The notes under the pieces: generated by a model
What the model saw: the letters and a program-made list of their open reading frames with translations, nothing else
Database searches by the model: none
Told to the model about the DNA's origin: nothing
Program-made: the position numbers and the translations under genes
Shown here: positions 1 through 7,441 of the stretch, in pieces
Numbering within the stretch: position 1 is the stretch's first letter
Layout: the number at the start of each line of letters is the position of its first letter
From: Candidatus Latescibacterota bacterium
GTDB lineage: Bacteria > JAAXHH01 > JABIQT01
Direction: 5' to 3'
DNA: 8,971 nt
NCBI GenBank assembly: GCA_018667995.1
Contig: JABIQT010000733.1
Span: forward strand, 1-8,971

Positions 1-256
1 AAATGATTTAGGTGATATACTCGGCGAAATCGGACAGGATCTTCGTGACAGGATCTTCGTCAATATCGTCCATCTTCCCAGTAGGCTGCGTGACTATTCA
101 TTTCAGATTGTTGGGTTCGCCCGAGATGGATCTACGTATTTGACCGATCCAACAACGTCACGCGATCGGATTATCGCCTTAGTCGAACGATCAAACCTGA
201 CTCCAACAGATATCGTGGAAGTTGAACTTCGCTTTAAACGAATATTCCCTGGTTGA
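1..256 (+). CDS. 3' end of an unrecognised gene (partial)
   Basis: From base 2 the frame is open for 84 codons and ends at a TGA (254-256). The other two frames stop within the first 11 bases, so this is the only frame that can enter from outside the window. The visible C-terminal part is soluble, with alternating charged and hydrophobic residues (for example IVEVELRFKRIF near the end), and has no membrane segment or cysteine motif. I do not recognise the family. It lies on the same strand as the large protease-ATPase gene and ends 42 bp before its start, which suggests one operon and perhaps a functional partner. A perfect 14-bp tandem repeat (33-60) lies inside it. The start and most of the gene are outside the window. 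Confidence 0.65.
   Translation, partial: NDLGDILGEIGQDLRDRIFVNIVHLPSRLRDYSFQIVGFARDGSTYLTDPTTSRDRIIALVERSNLTPTDIVEVELRFKRIFPG
33..60. repeat. 14-bp perfect tandem duplication
   Basis: The unit GACAGGATCTTCGT occurs twice back to back (33-46 and 47-60). Fourteen is not a multiple of three, so the copies are read in different frames, as GQDLR and then DRIFV. This looks like slippage or a local duplication inside the coding region. Confidence 0.9.
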
Positions 257-298: not shown

Positions 299-3200
299 AT
301 GAAAGTAATCTCCCCGATACATGCGCTCCGATCAGATGATTATGTCGGAGCTCTAGAACGAAAGATCGCCGCCGTACCCACTTCAACCGAGGCAGGACGC
401 CAGGCGATTCTTCGATCTCTTGTGGATTCACTTCCGGACACCCAGAATCTCGCGCTCTGTTGTGACAAAATCCTCCTAATACAGTGCCGAAAACTGCTTA
501 AGAAAACACGAGAGGAAGCAGTTTCACGAGCGGTTGGGCTCATTAAGCGGCAGTGCCTGAATATTCGCAGGGCCGAGAGATTTCTGGATCAGGTGAGATG
601 TCCTGCAATTGACCTTGAGAAGATAGACGCACGAATCTCCGATCTCGAGACGGGGCAACTGTCTATAATCAATTTCGCTGACACACCGCACAACGAACGA
701 TATCGACTTCAGGTTGAGAAAGACAGACAGGGCAAGGTGGCATGGGAGGGCATACTAACCTTTGTACAGCACCTGTTCGCATTTGGTCAAACAGCTGGGC
801 CCGAATCCAGGTCCTTTGTTAACCTCGTCGAAGCATTGATCTGGGATGAGAGACGTTACCTACAAGGCGAATACTGGACTTGGGGACTATTTACACGTGG
901 AGATCACGGAGTAACTGAACGCATCAGTTTGAATCTTTTTCTGGGTGGTACGGGGCAGACGGCGCTCTTGGCATCCCCAATTCAGGGATCTGAAGATGGA
1001 GATAGATTTCGCCTCTCAATTCTCAACGCAAAAGAATCGGCCAAGAAATACATCAATGATCTCACGTCAGATGCATTAACAATAGGCAGCGAATTCGACA
1101 GTATGTTAAGGATCGGCCATAACACTGAGCCTCAAGAGCTTCGAGGAGGATCAGCAGGATTACCCATTGCGGTCATGATGGTGGCTCAACTAATCCACGC
1201 ACCCCCTATCGCCACGACTGCTCTGACCGGCGAGATAGATACTAGCGGAAACGTGCTACCTGTTAACGGAATTCGAGAGAAAGTCGAAGCCGCAACCCAA
1301 TTTGGAATCGAAAAAGTGCTACTCCCGACTGAAAACTTCGAGTCTCTTGGGGTTCATACTACGGATTTTCCTTACCTTGTACCGGTTCGAACGCTCCGTG
1401 AAGCTTGTGATCACCTATTCCGTGATTTCTTACTTGAAAATGGCTATCGGGCCTTTCCACTGTCGGCAACATCAGAAACGAGAGAGCCTGAGAGATTTTA
1501 TCCATCTGATGTACCCGTAAGCTCGCTCGTAGGTCGCGACAATGAGATGGTCTGGCTACACCAAGGCATTAACCGAGCTTTGTCCGCCAAAGGGTCGATC
1601 ATCTTAGTCTCTGGTGAAGCAGGCGTCGGAAAGTCCTATCTTGCTGAAGCAGCAGTGGCGCACGCACGGAGCTTAGGCATGACTGTACTGAGAAGCGCAT
1701 GTACATCATATTCGGCGGTTGTACCTTATCTGCCGATTGTAGATCCTCTACTGAGAATCGACCCACCTACGTCAAATCCGGGGAGCACAGAGATATGGTT
1801 AAATCTAGTAGCGTCGCTTCGAGATCTGCTTGAATGTTTGGACGACAGCAGACGGGATCAATCTTCAATGCGCCAAATACGATTCTTTGATATTATCATA
1901 TCAATGTTTCAGCATCTCATGAGCGGTCCTGGTATGGTTTTCCTGGTGGATGATCTCCAGTGGTGTGATAGTGGCAGTCTCCAGCTACTCCAGCGACTAG
2001 CTAGGCATCTCGAAGATAAAAGGCTCTGCATTTTGTGCACCTACCGCAGCGAAAGAGCCACCGCTCACTGGGAGGAATCTTCACACCACCTTATCGACCG
2101 GTTCGTGGCTGAACTACCTTCAAACGTTGTTAAAACTCTGAGGGTGAATAATCTGAACACTGAACAAACCCGTGTTATGGTTGAGAGCTTGCTGGAGAGT
2201 CACAACATCCCATTGTGGCTGAGCGATATCATCTTTTCCGAATCGGAAGGTAATCCGCTGTTCGTTCAAGAGGTTATTAGTTGGTGGAGGGCATCGGGAA
2301 TAATCCCACGAAATGGGTACAGTTTACATGATATTGACCGGACACAGATTTCAATTCCGCCCAAGATCTATGATCTCCTACGAGTACGAATTTCTAATCT
2401 CAAAGACGAGGATCGCGAGATACTGGAAGTAGCCGCAGTCATGGGCGAAGTTTTTGATATTGAGGATGTTACTGAGATCATCGGCTACCCGTCCACAACA
2501 ATTCTTCGGGCGACTCAGAGGCTCATTAGGGACCATAGGCTGCTTAACGAGAACGAAGGCAACCGTTACAGTTTTCGGCACGGAAAAATCCGCGAGGTCA
2601 CCTACCAAGAAACCACTCCCAACCTTAGAAAAGCTTACCACGCAGCCTGGTGTGACCTACACCTAACGGGTGCCACCAGAGGTATTACGCCCAGTCAAGA
2701 AGAAATAGCCAATCACTGTATGAGAGCTGGCCGGGAAGTCCAATCACTTCCCTATTTGCAGAATGCTGCCCGAAGAGCGACAGAAATGTGTGCCTACAGA
2801 GAGGCAACAACGTACTGGGAGCGTTTGGAGACTATCTACAACAAACTTACCGCTGTGGAGGCAGACGCTGAAATTGAACTCAATTTACGGCTCGGGCAGA
2901 TCTGTTACGAAACAGGAGACTATTCAACTTCTGCGATCCGCTGTAAAAGGGCTTTTCGATTGGCAAAATTGCGGTGTCGCCCAAAGCACCAGGGCGATGC
3001 CCTTATGCGCCTTGGTTCCATTTACAGAGATAGAAGCAGATGGGAGACGGCGAAACGTCTGTACAACGCTAGTCTCACCCAATACCACAGGAGCAAGGAT
3101 CATATCGGCACCATGGCAGCCAAAACCAATATCGGGCTTCTCGCATACTTGAAGGGTGACTGGGCCTCAGCAAACACTATCCTATCGGATGCTCTAGAGT

Positions 3201-3877
3201 TAGCAGAAGAGTGCCAGAATGACAAAGGCATCGCCATCTGTTCAGGAAATCTTGGTAATGTGGCGTATGCAGAGGGTAGAAACGAAGAGGCAATCGAGTT
3301 CTATCATACCAGTTTGAAATTCAATCATAAAATACGCAGTCCCCTAGGGATAGCAGAAATAGAGACAAACATGGGTCTGATATTCGAACGATTCCTAGAT
3401 TGGCAAACTGCCGCGGATTGCCACAAACGCAGTATAGAGAGTCTGGAGCGCTTGGGCAGTGTCAGGAATCTATTGAACTCATACATTAACTACGCCCGTG
3501 TCCTGCTACGTCTTGATGACGTAACTCTCGCCCAAAGTATCTGCTCAGAGATGGAGGGCCAATTGGAGGACTTAGGTAATCAGCGACTGATAGCCGAGAA
3601 CAAACGCGTACAAGCTCTAGCAGCTATCCGGATGGAGGACTTTCGGCAGTGCCAGCTGCTTTTGCGCACTTCTGCAGATATCTGTGAAAGAATAGAGGAT
3701 AAACCGGGGTATGCAGATACCAAGGAAATCATAGGGGAAATGTTTCAGCTTGAGGGAGATATTGAAAAGGCCAGAGCTGCTTACGAGGATTCGATCAAAC
3801 TGTACGAAAAGTGTGGCTCGATTGGAAACATTCCGTCCTTGCAGGGACGCCTATCTAACTTGAATTCTAATGATTGA
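299..3877 (+). CDS. Lon-protease / STAND-like ATPase / TPR fusion protein
   Basis: 1192 residues. Residues 1 to about 125 are helical, charged and unrecognised. Residues of roughly 200-375 match the Lon (S16) proteolytic domain: GGSAG with Ser285, TGE at 310-312 and REK with Lys328, then GIEKVLLPTEN. Ser285 and Lys328 are 43 apart, exactly as Ser679/Lys722 in E. coli Lon. Residues of about 410-800 form an AAA_16/STAND-like ATPase: LVGRDNEM (410-417), Walker A GEAGVGKS (439-446), Walker B VFLVDDLQW (547-555), GNPLFVQEV (651-659) and SFRHGKIRE (from 758). From about 857 to the end there are roughly eight TPR repeats of 38-41 residues. No signal peptide or membrane segment is visible, so it is probably cytoplasmic. 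The start is the first ATG after an in-frame stop at 254-256; no clear Shine-Dalgarno is seen. Known STAND proteins keep the C-terminal repeats for sensing, the ATPase for oligomerisation and the N-terminus as effector. By inference this is a ligand-triggered protease, for defence or signalling; the substrate is unknown. Confidence 0.93.
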   Translation: MKVISPIHALRSDDYVGALERKIAAVPTSTEAGRQAILRSLVDSLPDTQNLALCCDKILLIQCRKLLKKTREEAVSRAVGLIKRQCLNIRRAERFLDQVRCPAIDLEKIDARISDLETGQLSIINFADTPHNERYRLQVEKDRQGKVAWEGILTFVQHLFAFGQTAGPESRSFVNLVEALIWDERRYLQGEYWTWGLFTRGDHGVTERISLNLFLGGTGQTALLASPIQGSEDGDRFRLSILNAKESAKKYINDLTSDALTIGSEFDSMLRIGHNTEPQELRGGSAGLPIAVMMVAQLIHAPPIATTALTGEIDTSGNVLPVNGIREKVEAATQFGIEKVLLPTENFESLGVHTTDFPYLVPVRTLREACDHLFRDFLLENGYRAFPLSATSETREPERFYPSDVPVSSLVGRDNEMVWLHQGINRALSAKGSIILVSGEAGVGKSYLAEAAVAHARSLGMTVLRSACTSYSAVVPYLPIVDPLLRIDPPTSNPGSTEIWLNLVASLRDLLECLDDSRRDQSSMRQIRFFDIIISMFQHLMSGPGMVFLVDDLQWCDSGSLQLLQRLARHLEDKRLCILCTYRSERATAHWEESSHHLIDRFVAELPSNVVKTLRVNNLNTEQTRVMVESLLESHNIPLWLSDIIFSESEGNPLFVQEVISWWRASGIIPRNGYSLHDIDRTQISIPPKIYDLLRVRISNLKDEDREILEVAAVMGEVFDIEDVTEIIGYPSTTILRATQRLIRDHRLLNENEGNRYSFRHGKIREVTYQETTPNLRKAYHAAWCDLHLTGATRGITPSQEEIANHCMRAGREVQSLPYLQNAARRATEMCAYREATTYWERLETIYNKLTAVEADAEIELNLRLGQICYETGDYSTSAIRCKRAFRLAKLRCRPKHQGDALMRLGSIYRDRSRWETAKRLYNASLTQYHRSKDHIGTMAAKTNIGLLAYLKGDWASANTILSDALELAEECQNDKGIAICSGNLGNVAYAEGRNEEAIEFYHTSLKFNHKIRSPLGIAEIETNMGLIFERFLDWQTAADCHKRSIESLERLGSVRNLLNSYINYARVLLRLDDVTLAQSICSEMEGQLEDLGNQRLIAENKRVQALAAIRMEDFRQCQLLLRTSADICERIEDKPGYADTKEIIGEMFQLEGDIEKARAAYEDSIKLYEKCGSIGNIPSLQGRLSNLNSND

Positions 3878-3889
3878 TTCGGCTACAAA

Positions 3890-4864
3890 CTATCTTAGGT
3901 AATCGACTGAACCAACATCAAAATAGGTTTTGTAGGCATTTGAGCGGTGATGTTCTATAAACGAATCAGTTTTCTGTACTATGGTTGTAAATAGCTCTCC
4001 ATCAATCTGCTCCGGATGGCAGGCTTCAGGTTTATTGTAATGGGCTCGGATCAATAGGCTATTCTCATTCAGCGGCAGATCGCTGATATTAGACACATAC
4101 CGATGAAATAGTCCCTCGTTAAAAAGCCGGTACTCGACACTCGAAATGTAGATACAGGCGACCCCCAGTTCTCTCTCCTGACAGAATGATTTTATAGCTG
4201 ACAGCGTCTTTCTCCCAGAAAAATCTCCAGTGATCGGCACTATCAGGTTTTGAGACTGTTGCTGCTTGATAAACTCAAAAGAACTGCCGTTCGCCAGGAA
4301 ATTCCCAAAGACAGCTGGATCATCGCCGGAGAGTAAGAAATCCTTGAAAGTAGGATATGGTAACCCACCTGATGTAACCGTGGGCAACCGACACCGTAGA
4401 TTGAGATCGTATTGAGAAAAGTCCCGATACATCTCTCTGATGATAAGAATGTCATCAGAAGATAATCCCTTGGTGGTATCGATGACCCGCGGCAGTATTA
4501 ACGAGAGGTTTCTCTCCATCCTCTTCGGATCTGCGGCAGTTCTTTCGATATATTCTATCAATTGGCCCAGTGTTCTGTCGTCAGAAGAATCCTCACCATT
4601 GAAAGGCCTGGAGAATAGCATAGTTAGATACTCTTCTCTGCTGCCCGAAAGTAGAAAAAGTACACGAAAAAGGTGGTGAAGGAGAAGATTTTCACGTCTA
4701 TAATCGACAATGAATGAGATTACGGGCTGAACTCCCGCGATGTACGAGAAATTCTGATCTGGCCCTACACCAATGTAGACGCCACGGTTGGAAGGCATAT
4801 TGTTGATAAAGTGCCCAATTCTTGCATAATCAATCTCATTAGAAACCAGATACTCAAAATTCAT
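3890..4864 (-). CDS. Conserved protein of unknown function, LIC_10091-like
   Basis: 324 residues from the ATG at 4864. I recognise the pattern of an uncharacterised bacterial family, which I recall being named after Leptospira LIC_10091. The N-terminal third has the glycine-rich GVGPDQNFSYIA (from residue 32), then FIVDYRRENLL, with an Asp at the end of a strand and paired Arg. Next comes an FSRPF segment, and later NLIVPITGDFSGRK and CIYISSVEYRLF. The alternating strands and the early glycine-rich loop followed by Asp resemble a class I methyltransferase-type Rossmann fold, but that is inference and no activity is assigned. No signal peptide or membrane segment is seen. A TTG 27 bp upstream (4891) would add nine residues, but it lies inside a terminator stem, so I prefer the ATG, with a weak GGA upstream. 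It lies downstream of the acidic peptide gene and is convergent with the protease-ATPase gene, 12 bp apart. Confidence 0.85.
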   Translation of the reverse strand: MNFEYLVSNEIDYARIGHFINNMPSNRGVYIGVGPDQNFSYIAGVQPVISFIVDYRRENLLLHHLFRVLFLLSGSREEYLTMLFSRPFNGEDSSDDRTLGQLIEYIERTAADPKRMERNLSLILPRVIDTTKGLSSDDILIIREMYRDFSQYDLNLRCRLPTVTSGGLPYPTFKDFLLSGDDPAVFGNFLANGSSFEFIKQQQSQNLIVPITGDFSGRKTLSAIKSFCQERELGVACIYISSVEYRLFNEGLFHRYVSNISDLPLNENSLLIRAHYNKPEACHPEQIDGELFTTIVQKTDSFIEHHRSNAYKTYFDVGSVDYLR

Positions 4865-4876
4865 GGCGGATTTTCC

Positions 4877-4914
4877 AATAAAGAAGCCCAATCACCATGG
4901 TACAGTGATTGGGC
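4877..4914 (-). terminator. Intrinsic terminator after the acidic peptide gene
   Basis: GCCCAATCAC (4886-4895) and GTGATTGGGC (4905-4914) form a perfect 10-bp stem with a 9-nt loop. Read on the minus strand, the stem is followed by TTCTTTATT (4885-4877), a U-rich tail. The plus side has no T-tract, so it acts on minus-strand transcripts. It begins 33 bp after the stop codon of the 47-residue peptide gene and lies just before the LIC_10091-like gene, so it may end or attenuate a shared transcript. Confidence 0.8.
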
Positions 4915-4947
4915 TACCGTTGAGCTAACTTTATTCTGTAGGCCGAG

Positions 4948-5091
4948 TTACTCTTCGGTATCAGACAGCACTATGCTCGGAGCAACACGAGGTTCAATCT
5001 CTTCCGTAGCAGTTTCGAGAAGCAGTTCGAGATCGTCCATCGTGAATGTGTCAAGTTCTTCGGTTGTAATGTCGCGGATTTCCTGTGCCAT
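4948..5091 (-). CDS. Very acidic 47-residue peptide, unknown
   Basis: The ATG at 5091 opens a 47-codon frame ending in TAA (4948-4950). The product starts MAQEIRDITTEELDTFTMDD and ends in IVLSDTEE. It has 15 Asp/Glu against 2 Arg, no Lys, no Cys and no membrane segment. Evidence that it is real: GGGGG lies 7-8 nt before the ATG as a Shine-Dalgarno-like element, a promoter with two operator-like palindromes lies upstream, and a strong intrinsic terminator follows 33 bp after the stop. The opposite strand is open here too, but its reading is a serine-rich shadow. I do not recognise a family. Possible roles are a small regulator, a binding partner or inhibitor, or a precursor peptide; nothing in the window decides between them. 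The next gene on the same strand is the LIC_10091-like gene beyond the terminator. Confidence 0.65.
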   Translation of the reverse strand: MAQEIRDITTEELDTFTMDDLELLLETATEEIEPRVAPSIVLSDTEE

Positions 5092-5222: not shown

Positions 5223-5351
5223 TAATAAAATCCTATTTATTTGAATTTTTAAAGCATCAGCCAGTGTGGTTTTCGTTATTTCACAATGCTATCCTCCCAA
5301 CGATCAACCTGTTATCCACAGTACACACATCGGCGACAACTTACGCCCAGC

Positions 5352-5380
5352 TTGACTTTTGCTCCGCCTAAAACTATCTT
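5352..5380 (+). promoter_or_regulatory. Probable promoter of the zinc-ribbon gene pair
   Basis: TTGACT (5352-5357, 5 of 6), a 17-bp spacer and TATCTT (5375-5380, 4 of 6). The predicted start near 5387 lies about 50 bp before the ATG at 5439. This supports the internal ATG over the one at 5286. Confidence 0.45.
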
Positions 5381-5438
5381 TCCCGTAGTAAGTTACAACT
5401 CCAACCATCCCCCTGTCTTAAACCATATTGATACGCGT

Positions 5439-5735
5439 ATGCCTACCTGCCAGAAATGCCAGACCGTGGCCCTTCCAGACGATAAGTTCTGTGGTCATTG
5501 CGGATACGATATTCATGCCGCCACCACCGAATTATCTACGCTGACTGAGCATTCACTGGACGTCGTCGAAGTGAAATTCCGGCTGGGCATGGTATACTAT
5601 AAGAAGGATAACATGGAAAGCGCCGTTGCCCTCTGGAAAGAAGTGCTGGAGCTGGATAAAGGCCACGCCGACGCTATCCGCATGATGGAGAGAGTACGAT
5701 CCTACCAGGATCCAACCAACAACGACGATGAATGA
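5439..5735 (+). CDS. Small zinc-ribbon protein with a TPR-like helical segment
   Basis: 98 residues. The N-terminus holds a CxxC-X10-CxxC zinc ribbon (Cys4, Cys7, Cys18, Cys21, ending FCGHCGYDI). After an acidic linker, VKFRLGMVYYKKDNMESAVA and WKEVLELDKGHADAI have the spacing of one TPR-type helix pair (G-Y-x(5-6)-A-x(3)-W). It is probably a cytoplasmic adaptor or scaffold protein; the binding partner is unknown. The ATG at 5439 is preferred over one 153 bp upstream because the extra 51 residues look non-coding, a promoter lies between them, and the zinc ribbon normally begins near the N-terminus. No clear Shine-Dalgarno is seen. The last 8 bases overlap the start of the zinc-ribbon/FHA gene, so the two are almost certainly co-expressed and perhaps translationally coupled. 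Confidence 0.8.
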   Translation: MPTCQKCQTVALPDDKFCGHCGYDIHAATTELSTLTEHSLDVVEVKFRLGMVYYKKDNMESAVALWKEVLELDKGHADAIRMMERVRSYQDPTNNDDE

Positions 5736-6186
5736 GCAGATGGTATGCGCCGAATGCGGCCACGAGAAGAGAAAGAATAACCGCTACTGCACTGAATGTG
5801 GAAAGCGCCTGGATACTCGTCCCAGGGCCCTTGGCAGACTAATAATCGTAAGCGAAGCTGGCACAGAACCCGACTCGCGACGGAGGGTCCAGCAGAACAA
5901 TATCACCAATGAACGCCGATCTGGGTTTGATATCAGCCAGTTTCCATTGAAAATCGGACGAAGTGACGACAACACGTTCGTCATGATCGACGAGCAATCC
6001 TCAGCGTATCATGCCCTCATAACCACCGATGGACTACAGTTCTGGATTCAAGACCTGGAAAGTACCAATGGAACCCATATTGACGGTATCCGCATAGACG
6101 CGACGACGCAACTACGTGCCGACAGCTTGATCAAAATCGGATCTACGATTATTAAGTTCGAACACTTTCCAGAAACCGCGGCTTGA
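5728..6186 (+). CDS. Zinc-ribbon / FHA-domain protein
   Basis: 152 residues. The N-terminus has a CxxC-X10-CxxC zinc ribbon (Cys7, Cys10, Cys21, Cys24). A polar, Arg-rich linker follows (about 30-68), then an FHA domain (about 70-148). Its signature residues are present: IGRS with Arg78, the S-x-x-H motif at Ser92-His95, and STNGT with Asn114-Gly115. FHA domains bind phosphothreonine peptides, so this is likely a phospho-dependent adaptor working with a Ser/Thr kinase encoded elsewhere. No membrane segment is seen. The ATG at 5728 overlaps the end of the preceding zinc-ribbon gene by 8 bp; an ATG four codons further in is also possible and would leave the domains unchanged. The repeated layout of ribbon plus interaction module in both proteins suggests they act together. 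Confidence 0.88.
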   Translation: MNEQMVCAECGHEKRKNNRYCTECGKRLDTRPRALGRLIIVSEAGTEPDSRRRVQQNNITNERRSGFDISQFPLKIGRSDDNTFVMIDEQSSAYHALITTDGLQFWIQDLESTNGTHIDGIRIDATTQLRADSLIKIGSTIIKFEHFPETAA

Positions 6187-6262: not shown

Positions 6263-7441
6263 ATGACAGATGTTGTATATCCACGACGGGTTACCCGGGA
6301 GGTGCGAATAGGGAGCATCGTTGTTGGAGGGTCTAATCCGATTGCGGTTCAATCGATGATTACGGAAAACACGCGGGATGTGGAATTATGTGTGGCCGCG
6401 GCCATCAAACTGCATGAAGCTGGTTGCGAGATCGTGCGTGTTACTACACCGACGCTTGCCGACGCAAAGTGCCTGGGACAGATGAAACAGATCCTTCGGG
6501 ATCGGAATATCGATATTCCACTTGTTGCTGACGTGCACCACCAGGGAACTCAGATTGCCCAGGAGGTGGCGAAACATGTGGACAAAGTACGGATCAATCC
6601 AGGCCTCTTCGTATTCCAACGAATTGCAGATTCGATCGACTATACCGAAGACGAAATGCGGCTCGCCCGGCAGGAAGTTGAGGACCAGCTACGACCCGTC
6701 ATCGAGGCCTGCAAGGTTCGCGATATTGCCATGCGAATTGGTGTCAACCATGGTTCTCTCTCGGATAGAATGACCGTGACATATGGCGATACCCCCGAGG
6801 GCATGGTGTCCTCCGCTCTGGAGTTCATCGACATCTGTGAGAAATACGACTATCACAATCTAATCATATCTCTCAAGGCATCGCGCGTACCTGTGATGCT
6901 CGAATCCAATCGTCTCATGGCAAATCGAATGAGTGATCTCGGGATGGACTATCCCCTTCACCTCGGCGTCACGGAGGCTGGTGATGGTGAATATGCGCGG
7001 ATTAAATCTACGACCGGAATCGGGACACTGCTGGCGGAGGGGATTGGCGACACCATTCGAGTATCACTCGCGGAAGACCCCGTGAATGAGATTCCGGTGT
7101 GCTATGATATCCTGCAGGCACTTGGACTACGTCGTACCAAGGTCGAGTTCATCGCTTGTCCATCGTGTGGGCGTACCAAATTCGACCTGACGAATGTACT
7201 CGCCGAAGTCAAGCAGGCTACAGGACACCTGGCGGGCCTCGACATCGCTGTCATGGGATGTATCGTAAATGGGCCCGGCGAAATGGCCGATGCTGACTAC
7301 GGTTATGTAGGGCGTGCGAACGGCATCATCTCACTCTATCGCGGCCATGAGTGCGTAACGATGAGCGTTCCTCAGGAAAGTGGGGTCGATGAGCTGGTAG
7401 ACCTCATCAAGCAGGACGGCCGCTGGGTTGATCCGGCCTGA
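6263..7441 (+). CDS. ispG: IspG, 4-hydroxy-3-methylbut-2-enyl-diphosphate synthase
   Basis: 392 residues, also called GcpE. This 4Fe-4S enzyme converts 2-C-methyl-D-erythritol 2,4-cyclodiphosphate to HMBPP, the next-to-last step of the MEP isoprenoid pathway, in the cytoplasm. The N-terminal TIM-barrel part contains [20 protein letters not shown] and [13 protein letters not shown], then [14 protein letters not shown] and [11 protein letters not shown]. The C-terminal cluster domain has Cys299 and Cys302 (CPSCGRT), Cys333 ([10 protein letters not shown]) and the conserved Glu340. Wording such as [30 protein letters not shown] and [16 protein letters not shown]-type segments matches the cyanobacterial/chloroplast subtype better than the E. 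coli one, and the length (about 400) fits that two-domain form. The start is fixed by a strong Shine-Dalgarno. The gene seems intact. Its last 35 bp overlap the 3' end of the convergent rlmA. Confidence 0.98.

What the first reader, a model, noticed from the sequence alone, without database searches (positions are those of the whole stretch)
299..3877. A Lon-type protease in the effector position of a STAND-like ATPase with a TPR sensor
In ordinary Lon the protease follows its own AAA+ module. Here an S16 protease domain with an intact Ser-Lys dyad precedes a P-loop module of the AAA_16/STAND kind, and the C-terminus is TPR repeats instead of DNA-binding or PDZ parts. The order effector, switch, sensor is that of Avs/NLR-like immune proteins, and of AAA_16-TPR signalling regulators. 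A ligand-triggered, oligomerising protease is a plausible mode of action. The domains are seen in the sequence; the defence or signalling role is inference.
Basis: partly seen in the sequence, partly recalled or inferred. Interest (0 to 1): 0.78.

Follow-up and report, generated by a model that had tools for sequence, protein, structure and literature searches.

The report
Lon protease on a STAND-TPR switch
A bacterial protein carries a Lon-type protease domain on a molecular switch (STAND ATPase plus TPR sensor) that carries a kinase in its closest relatives, and its gene follows an anti-sigma-like gene, so it is probably a signal-triggered protease that switches on a set of genes rather than an anti-phage weapon.

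Summary
The 1192-aa ORF at 299-3877 has an S16 (Lon) protease domain with intact Ser285-Lys328, then a complete AAA_16/STAND ATPase, then about nine TPR repeats. A 33%-identical relative in another family of the same order (a Candidatus Zixibacteria MAG) has the same domain order and dyad, so it is no chimera. No third case was found in about 1,400 sampled genomes, a limited pattern scan of 85,000 species genomes, IMG/VR or PLSDB. In a tree of the ATPase the two Lon-STANDs nest among kinase-STAND-TPR proteins of the same order: a kinase was swapped for a protease on an existing switch. The defence reading is not supported: neighbours are ispG, FHA and RlmA genes, and no defence family matches beyond generic domains. 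In both genomes the gene directly follows a zf-HC2-type anti-sigma-like (ZAS) gene, which in the relative is coupled to an ECF sigma gene. Sigma and ZAS also lie beside ispG in related genomes without a Lon-STAND. Best reading: a STAND-triggered protease acting on the anti-sigma, working like CalpL/CalpT/CalpS without CRISPR. Cleavage, ligand and oligomerisation are inferred.

The parts
2..256 (+). 3' part (84 codons, cut by the contig end) of a zf-HC2-type anti-sigma-like gene (ZAS); ends 42 nt before the Lon-STAND start
   Evidence: 34% identity to residues 133-212 of the 213-aa G011 protein; aligned with six full-length relatives, all with H-x3-C-x2-C
299..3877 (+). Lon(S16)-STAND(AAA_16)-TPR protein, 1192 aa
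299..874 (+). N-terminal region (residues 1-192), predicted mostly helical at low confidence, no known family; conserved with the G011 relative
875..1453 (+). S16 (Lon) protease domain, residues about 193-385
   Evidence: Pfam Lon_C 283-350; hhalign 246-380; 193-245 by inspection only
1151..1153 (+). catalytic Ser285 codon
1280..1282 (+). catalytic Lys328 codon
1526..2293 (+). AAA_16/STAND P-loop module (residues 410-665): Walker A nt 1613-1636, Walker B nt 1943-1969, GNP motif within nt 2246-2263
2324..2698 (+). helical linker/winged-helix-like region between ATPase and TPRs (residues about 676-800)
   Evidence: secondary structure of a low-confidence part of the model; otherwise inference from STAND anatomy
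2696..3868 (+). TPR superhelix (residues about 800-1190, about nine repeats)
   Evidence: Pfam TPR_12; model pLDDT about 80-96
3890..4891 (-). DUF7790 protein, convergent with the Lon-STAND gene and syntenic in G011; probably a separate unit
5728..6186 (+). zinc-ribbon/FHA protein, syntenic neighbour between the locus and ispG
6263..7441 (+). ispG, syntenic anchor of the locus in the order

Best explanation
A STAND-type signalling protease. At rest the STAND module and the C-terminal TPR superhelix hold the N-terminal S16 domain inactive. An unknown intracellular ligand (protein, peptide or small molecule) binds the TPRs, ADP is exchanged for ATP, the molecules oligomerise, and the S16 domains come into an active assembly. 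The protease then cuts the product of the gene just upstream, a soluble zf-HC2-type anti-sigma factor; this frees the ECF sigma factor encoded with it and starts a transcriptional response. It works like the CRISPR protease switch CalpL/CalpT/CalpS, with a STAND-TPR switch in place of the cA4-binding SAVED domain. It arose when the kinase of a kinase-STAND-TPR regulator was replaced by a Lon domain. Shown: domain order, intact catalytic and nucleotide-binding motifs, gene order, kinship with kinase-STANDs. Inferred: proteolytic activity, ligand gating, oligomerisation, and the anti-sigma as substrate.
For: Domains and motifs. Same architecture and dyad in G011 at 33% identity, although the motif around the serine has drifted (GGSAG to GVSLG). 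In G011 the order is M50/HlyD protein, kinase-STAND-TPR, sigma, ZAS, Lon-STAND-TPR; sigma and ZAS overlap by 4 nt and ZAS ends 21 nt before the Lon-STAND; in the window that gap is 42 nt. The sigma passes the ECF superfamily cut-off (TIGR02937, 44.9 against 42.9) and ZAS weakly matches an anti-sigma model (NF052375). H-x3-C-x2-C is in all six full-length ZAS proteins. Sigma orthologues (53-57% identity) are in all 12 g3 genomes; sigma-ZAS-ispG is intact in five of seven g3 loci read. ATPase tree: the Lon-STANDs pair (97/95), sister to kinase-STANDs of G011 and G001 (99/95), a further G001 kinase-STAND just outside (100/99). Precedents of proteases that act on an anti-sigma of an ECF sigma: CalpL/T/S (PMC11417357) and Csx29/Csx30/CASP-sigma (PMC10028731).
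Against: No biochemical evidence; only two Lon-STANDs are known. The sigma gene of the window's own genome is not seen: the contig starts inside the ZAS gene and no orthologue was found in the 85%-complete assembly. Sigma is kept in 12 related genomes that have no Lon-STAND, and in two of seven g3 loci ZAS itself is reduced to remnants beside an intact sigma, so the protease is at most an optional input. The zf-HC2 match is weak (Pfam 17.2 bits, under its cut-off). In G011 a kinase-STAND stands on the other side of the sigma gene and could be the actual input.
Confidence: 0.43

Rival explanations
1. A STAND-gated regulatory protease with another substrate (for example a small protein linked to DUF7790, the M50/HlyD membrane protein, the neighbouring kinase-STAND, or a distant regulator); adjacency to sigma-ZAS reflects co-regulation only.
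For: Sigma is kept without Lon-STAND in 12 genomes and ZAS is decaying in two of seven loci; a conserved small ORF with DUF7790 and, in G011, an M50/HlyD protein are also nearby; TPR-STAND proteins are also named in RiPP systems (NCBIfam matches below cut-off to TOMM_kin_cyc, HaaT, FxSxx_TPR).
Against: DUF7790 and the small ORF are convergent with the Lon-STAND gene; the M50/HlyD gene is not seen in the window. Only ZAS is directly upstream and co-directional in both genomes.
Confidence: 0.32
2. An NLR/Avs-like defence protein: a phage component is sensed by the TPRs, the STAND module oligomerises, and the Lon domain cuts host proteins and halts growth.
For: Effector-STAND-repeat order as in Avs/NLR proteins; peptidases in conflict systems with STAND proteins are described, trypsin-like and caspase-like (PMC7159879).
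Against: No defence family at meaningful score; neighbours are ispG, FHA, RlmA; syntenic across two families; closest relatives of the switch are kinase-STANDs; not found on viral contigs or plasmids.
Confidence: 0.12
3. The S16 domain is not catalytic but a binding or oligomerisation module, as in RadA, ChlI or BrxL.
For: S16-like folds without activity exist (established knowledge); ChlI, RadA and BrxL models match the same stretch weakly.
Against: Ser285, Lys328 and the LTG motif are intact and kept in the relative; matches to Lon/LonB are much stronger.
Confidence: 0.09
4. An assembly chimera joining a Lon fragment to a TPR regulator.
For: The window is a whole contig of a fragmented MAG (1165 contigs).
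Against: The same fusion at 33% identity with the same neighbours in another MAG; one open frame with even GC.
Confidence: 0.01

Closest known systems
CalpL/CalpT/CalpS (type III CRISPR Lon protease, anti-sigma, ECF sigma)
   Same: N-terminal S16 effector with a C-terminal sensor; anti-sigma(-like) and ECF sigma genes next to it (in G011)
   Different: STAND ATPase plus TPR instead of SAVED; zf-HC2-type anti-sigma-like protein; no CRISPR or cyclic-nucleotide genes seen in the locus
Kinase-STAND(AAA_16)-TPR regulators, including the TOMM kinase/cyclase fusion TIGR03903 and the kinase-STANDs of the same order
   Same: Same ATPase and TPR chassis; Lon-STANDs nest among the kinase-STANDs of the order
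   Different: The effector is an S16 protease, not a kinase or cyclase; score far below the TIGR03903 cut-off
PDB 6mfv, STAND protein with a TPR sensor
   Same: Closest solved fold of STAND plus TPR
   Different: 6mfv is titled only as a STAND protein with a TPR sensor; no S16 part is named there
Csx29/Csx30/CASP-sigma (type III-E CRISPR, TPR-CHAT protease)
   Same: Triggered protease that relieves anti-sigma inhibition of an ECF sigma (PMC10028731)
   Different: CHAT protease activated by Cas7-11; not homologous
LonA/LonB proteases
   Same: S16 catalytic domain with Ser-Lys dyad, nearest to LonB
   Different: No Lon AAA+ module before the S16 domain; a STAND-type ATPase after it

Membership tests
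STAND ATPase with TPR sensor (AAA_16/MalT/AfsR type) | Walker A, hhhhDD-type Walker B, GNP motif | tested here: met
   AAA_16 8e-23
STAND ATPase with TPR sensor (AAA_16/MalT/AfsR type) | C-terminal superstructure-forming repeats as sensor | tested here: met
   TPR_12, model, 6mfv match; that they sense a ligand is inference
STAND ATPase with TPR sensor (AAA_16/MalT/AfsR type) | Ligand- and ATP-dependent oligomerisation | not testable with these tools
   needs biochemistry
S16 peptidase domain | Lon_C homology and Ser-Lys dyad | tested here: met
   dyad conserved in G011
LonA/LonB protease | Own AAA+ unfoldase directly N-terminal of S16 | tested here: not met
   residues 1-192 match no family; the ATPase is AAA_16 and lies C-terminal
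CalpL/CalpT/CalpS | SAVED or CARF sensor on the Lon protease | tested here: not met
   only the S16 stretch matches CARF/SAVED-Lon models, at 15-18 bits
CalpL/CalpT/CalpS | Adjacent ECF sigma and anti-sigma genes | tested here: met
   in G011, with a ZAS-type anti-sigma-like protein; in the window only the end of ZAS is on the contig
CalpL/CalpT/CalpS | CalpT-type anti-sigma as substrate, cA4 as trigger | not testable with these tools
   ZAS was not compared with CalpT; needs biochemistry
Avs/NLR-like anti-phage STAND | Match to an Avs or other defence model over the protein | tested here: not met
   PADLOC hits only to generic S16/TPR/P-loop stretches
Avs/NLR-like anti-phage STAND | Location in a defence island or mobile element | tested here: not met
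   syntenic neighbourhood with ispG; not on viral contigs or plasmids
TOMM kinase/cyclase fusion (TIGR03903) | Score above cut-off, N-terminal kinase | tested here: not met
   184.7 bits against a cut-off of 705.75; residues 409-979 only
zf-HC2 (ZAS) anti-sigma factor (upstream gene) | H-x3-C-x2-C motif, pairing with an ECF sigma | tested here: met
   motif in six of six full-length relatives, sigma next to it; Pfam score below cut-off; the window holds only the C-terminal part, without the motif

The most novel reading that the evidence does not exclude
A CRISPR-independent, STAND/TPR-triggered Lon protease that frees an ECF sigma factor by cutting a soluble ZAS anti-sigma: a new input module for regulated proteolysis, created by exchanging the kinase of a kinase-STAND for a Lon domain.
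Probability: 0.4. Interest if true: 0.78.

Novelty: new variant of a known kind. Interest (0 to 1): 0.62.

Why it matters
STAND proteins are known with kinases, cyclases, DNA-binding domains, nucleases, caspases and trypsins as outputs; a Lon (S16) output with an intact dyad was not found in the papers searched. If it acts on the neighbouring anti-sigma, the CalpL-style protease/anti-sigma/sigma wiring was reached by a second route without CRISPR. It is also a clean case of effector swapping on one STAND chassis within one bacterial order, with kinase and protease versions on either side of one sigma-ZAS pair.

Tried and rejected
AlphaFold2 of residues 1-405 with a two-row alignment gave a useless model (pLDDT 39.8), so no fold claim is made for the S16 part from structure; the full-length model is good only for the TPRs and fair for the ATPase. 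Searches for more Lon-STANDs: genome contigs pattern scan (one locus), IMG/VR (none), plasmids (only Lon and generic AAA_16), 384 relatives and 195, 398 and 400 genomes of three other phyla (only matches confined to the S16 region; the one odd case opened, L102, is a LonB-type protein). A phylum search around G073 held a single genome. Rejected: assembly chimera (same fusion in another MAG); defence island. Literature searches for Lon plus STAND found no described case. The promoter/terminator scan was near chance except for one strong hairpin.

Full report
OBSERVATION. The ORF at 299-3877 encodes 1192 aa in one frame. Pfam gives Lon_C at 283-350 (2.8e-13), AAA_16 at 410-578 (8e-23) and TPR_12 in five stretches (9e-28), all above the curated cut-offs. 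Solved relatives of the first part are S16 domains, best the LonB group of the 1z0c series. A profile of the window and its relative aligned with 26 S16 domains of ordinary Lon/LonB over 246-380 (99.1%, 3.7e-19). Ser285 (GGSAG), the LTGE motif and Lys328 (GIREK) stand at the catalytic places. The ATPase has GEAGVGKS, LVDDLQWCD and GNP, the signature of STAND ATPases (family knowledge). AlphaFold2 gives a confident TPR superhelix and a fair ATPase, and the best PDB fold match is 6mfv, a STAND protein with a TPR sensor. The N-terminal 400 residues are not modelled with confidence, so the Lon assignment rests on sequence profiles. The first 192 residues match no family.

RELATIVES. The only full relative found is in a Candidatus Zixibacteria MAG (VGJU01000059.1; G011 here), another family of the same order. 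It has 36% identity over the N-terminal and S16 part and 33% overall, with Ser and Lys kept while neighbouring residues drift. Its frame breaks at a run of ten T (L048 about 14812), with the rest of the TPRs in another frame; I take this for a sequencing or assembly slip, but cannot prove it. No further member was found in 384 relatives, nor in 195, 398 and 400 genomes of three other phyla: other matches were confined to the S16 region, and the one odd case I opened is a LonB-type protein. IMG/VR had none, and PLSDB only Lon and generic AAA_16 matches. The pattern scan of 85,000 species genomes used only two short patterns, so distant members may be missed.

ORIGIN. In a tree of the ATPase region the two Lon-STANDs pair (97/95). 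Their sister is the pair of kinase-STANDs of G011 and G001 (99/95), and a further G001 kinase-STAND lies just outside (100/99) (kinase domain of the G011 protein; the G001 proteins align with it from the kinase part on). The protease therefore most likely replaced a kinase on an existing switch within this order. In G011 the kinase-STAND and the Lon-STAND lie on either side of the sigma-ZAS pair and share 77% identical DNA over 250 bp of their TPR parts, which suggests gene conversion or a mix-up of paralogues in assembly.

CONTEXT. In G011 the order is M50/HlyD protein, kinase-STAND-TPR, ECF sigma, ZAS, Lon-STAND-TPR, DUF7790 (reverse), FHA, ispG. The sigma passes the ECF superfamily cut-off. 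The next gene overlaps it by four bases and carries H-x3-C-x2-C, the zf-HC2 anti-sigma motif, without reaching the Pfam cut-off. The window starts inside the same ZAS gene and continues with Lon-STAND, DUF7790 (reverse), a zinc-ribbon/TPR protein, FHA, ispG. In the g3 genomes of G011's family the sigma is kept at 53-57% identity. Of seven g3 loci read, five hold sigma-ZAS-ispG with no STAND protein between, and two hold sigma and ispG with only remnants of ZAS. These genomes have no match to the Lon-STAND beyond the S16 domains of ordinary Lon. So sigma beside ispG is the stable core, ZAS is usual, and the Lon-STAND is an added input, or one lost in g3. In the window's own genome no orthologue of the sigma was found.

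MECHANISM. The most likely mode is ligand binding by the TPRs, nucleotide exchange and oligomerisation by the STAND module, and activation of the S16 domain by assembly, since the S16 domains of Lon work as hexamers (established knowledge). The most likely substrate is the product of the gene upstream. CalpL cuts the anti-sigma CalpT so that the ECF sigma CalpS can be released (PMC11417357), and Csx29 cuts Csx30 to relieve inhibition of CASP-sigma (PMC10028731). The parallel is one of wiring, not of descent: no SAVED or CARF part is present and the CRISPR Lon models match only the S16 stretch, weakly. I give the anti-sigma substrate 0.43, another regulatory substrate 0.32 and a defence role 0.12.

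DEFENCE READING. No defence family matches beyond generic domains. The neighbourhood is shared between two families and anchored on ispG. Peptidases linked to STAND proteins in conflict systems are known, trypsin-like and caspase-like ones (PMC7159879), but neither that paper nor PMC8195603 mentions a Lon domain.

VERDICT. A real, rare and well-formed combination: a new variant of the known STAND effector theme.

Noticed in passing
window 4948-5091 (-); L048 16506-16622 (-): A 47-aa acidic ORF (MAQEIRDITTEELDTFTMDDLELLLETATEEIEP...) upstream of DUF7790 on the same strand, 72% identical over 39 aa in G011. A hairpin follows it in both genomes (window 4885-4915; in G011 by eye). It matched nothing in NCBIfam or on plasmids; it may be a short leader-like protein, possibly a RiPP-type precursor, or a small regulator.
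   Followed up: partly
L048 4950-7217; L050 2124-4454: M50-type intramembrane protease plus HlyD adaptor protein next to the kinase-STAND in G011 and G001; the N-terminal half matches the daptide metalloprotease model below its cut-off (5e-53). A secretion or peptide-maturation link to these STAND loci is possible.
   Followed up: no
L048 about 14812 and 10294-10296: In G011 the Lon-STAND frame breaks at a T10 run and the kinase-STAND has an in-frame TGA, both near a 250-bp stretch of 77% DNA identity shared by the two genes: assembly error, gene conversion or real disruption.
   Followed up: partly
L089 and L090 (G002, G007): Beside an intact sigma gene and ispG only remnants of the C-terminal part of the ZAS gene are left, so this sigma may run without its anti-sigma in these genomes.
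   Followed up: partly
window 3890-4891 (-): DUF7790 protein (4e-29) of unknown function, with relatives on two Gemmatirosa plasmids and a weak match to the LIC_10091 family; conserved beside the Lon-STAND in both genomes.
   Followed up: partly
window 5286-6186: Two overlapping genes: zinc ribbon plus one TPR, then zinc ribbon plus FHA (phosphothreonine reader), kept beside ispG in G000 and G011; the end of the FHA gene also precedes ispG in G013.
   Followed up: no
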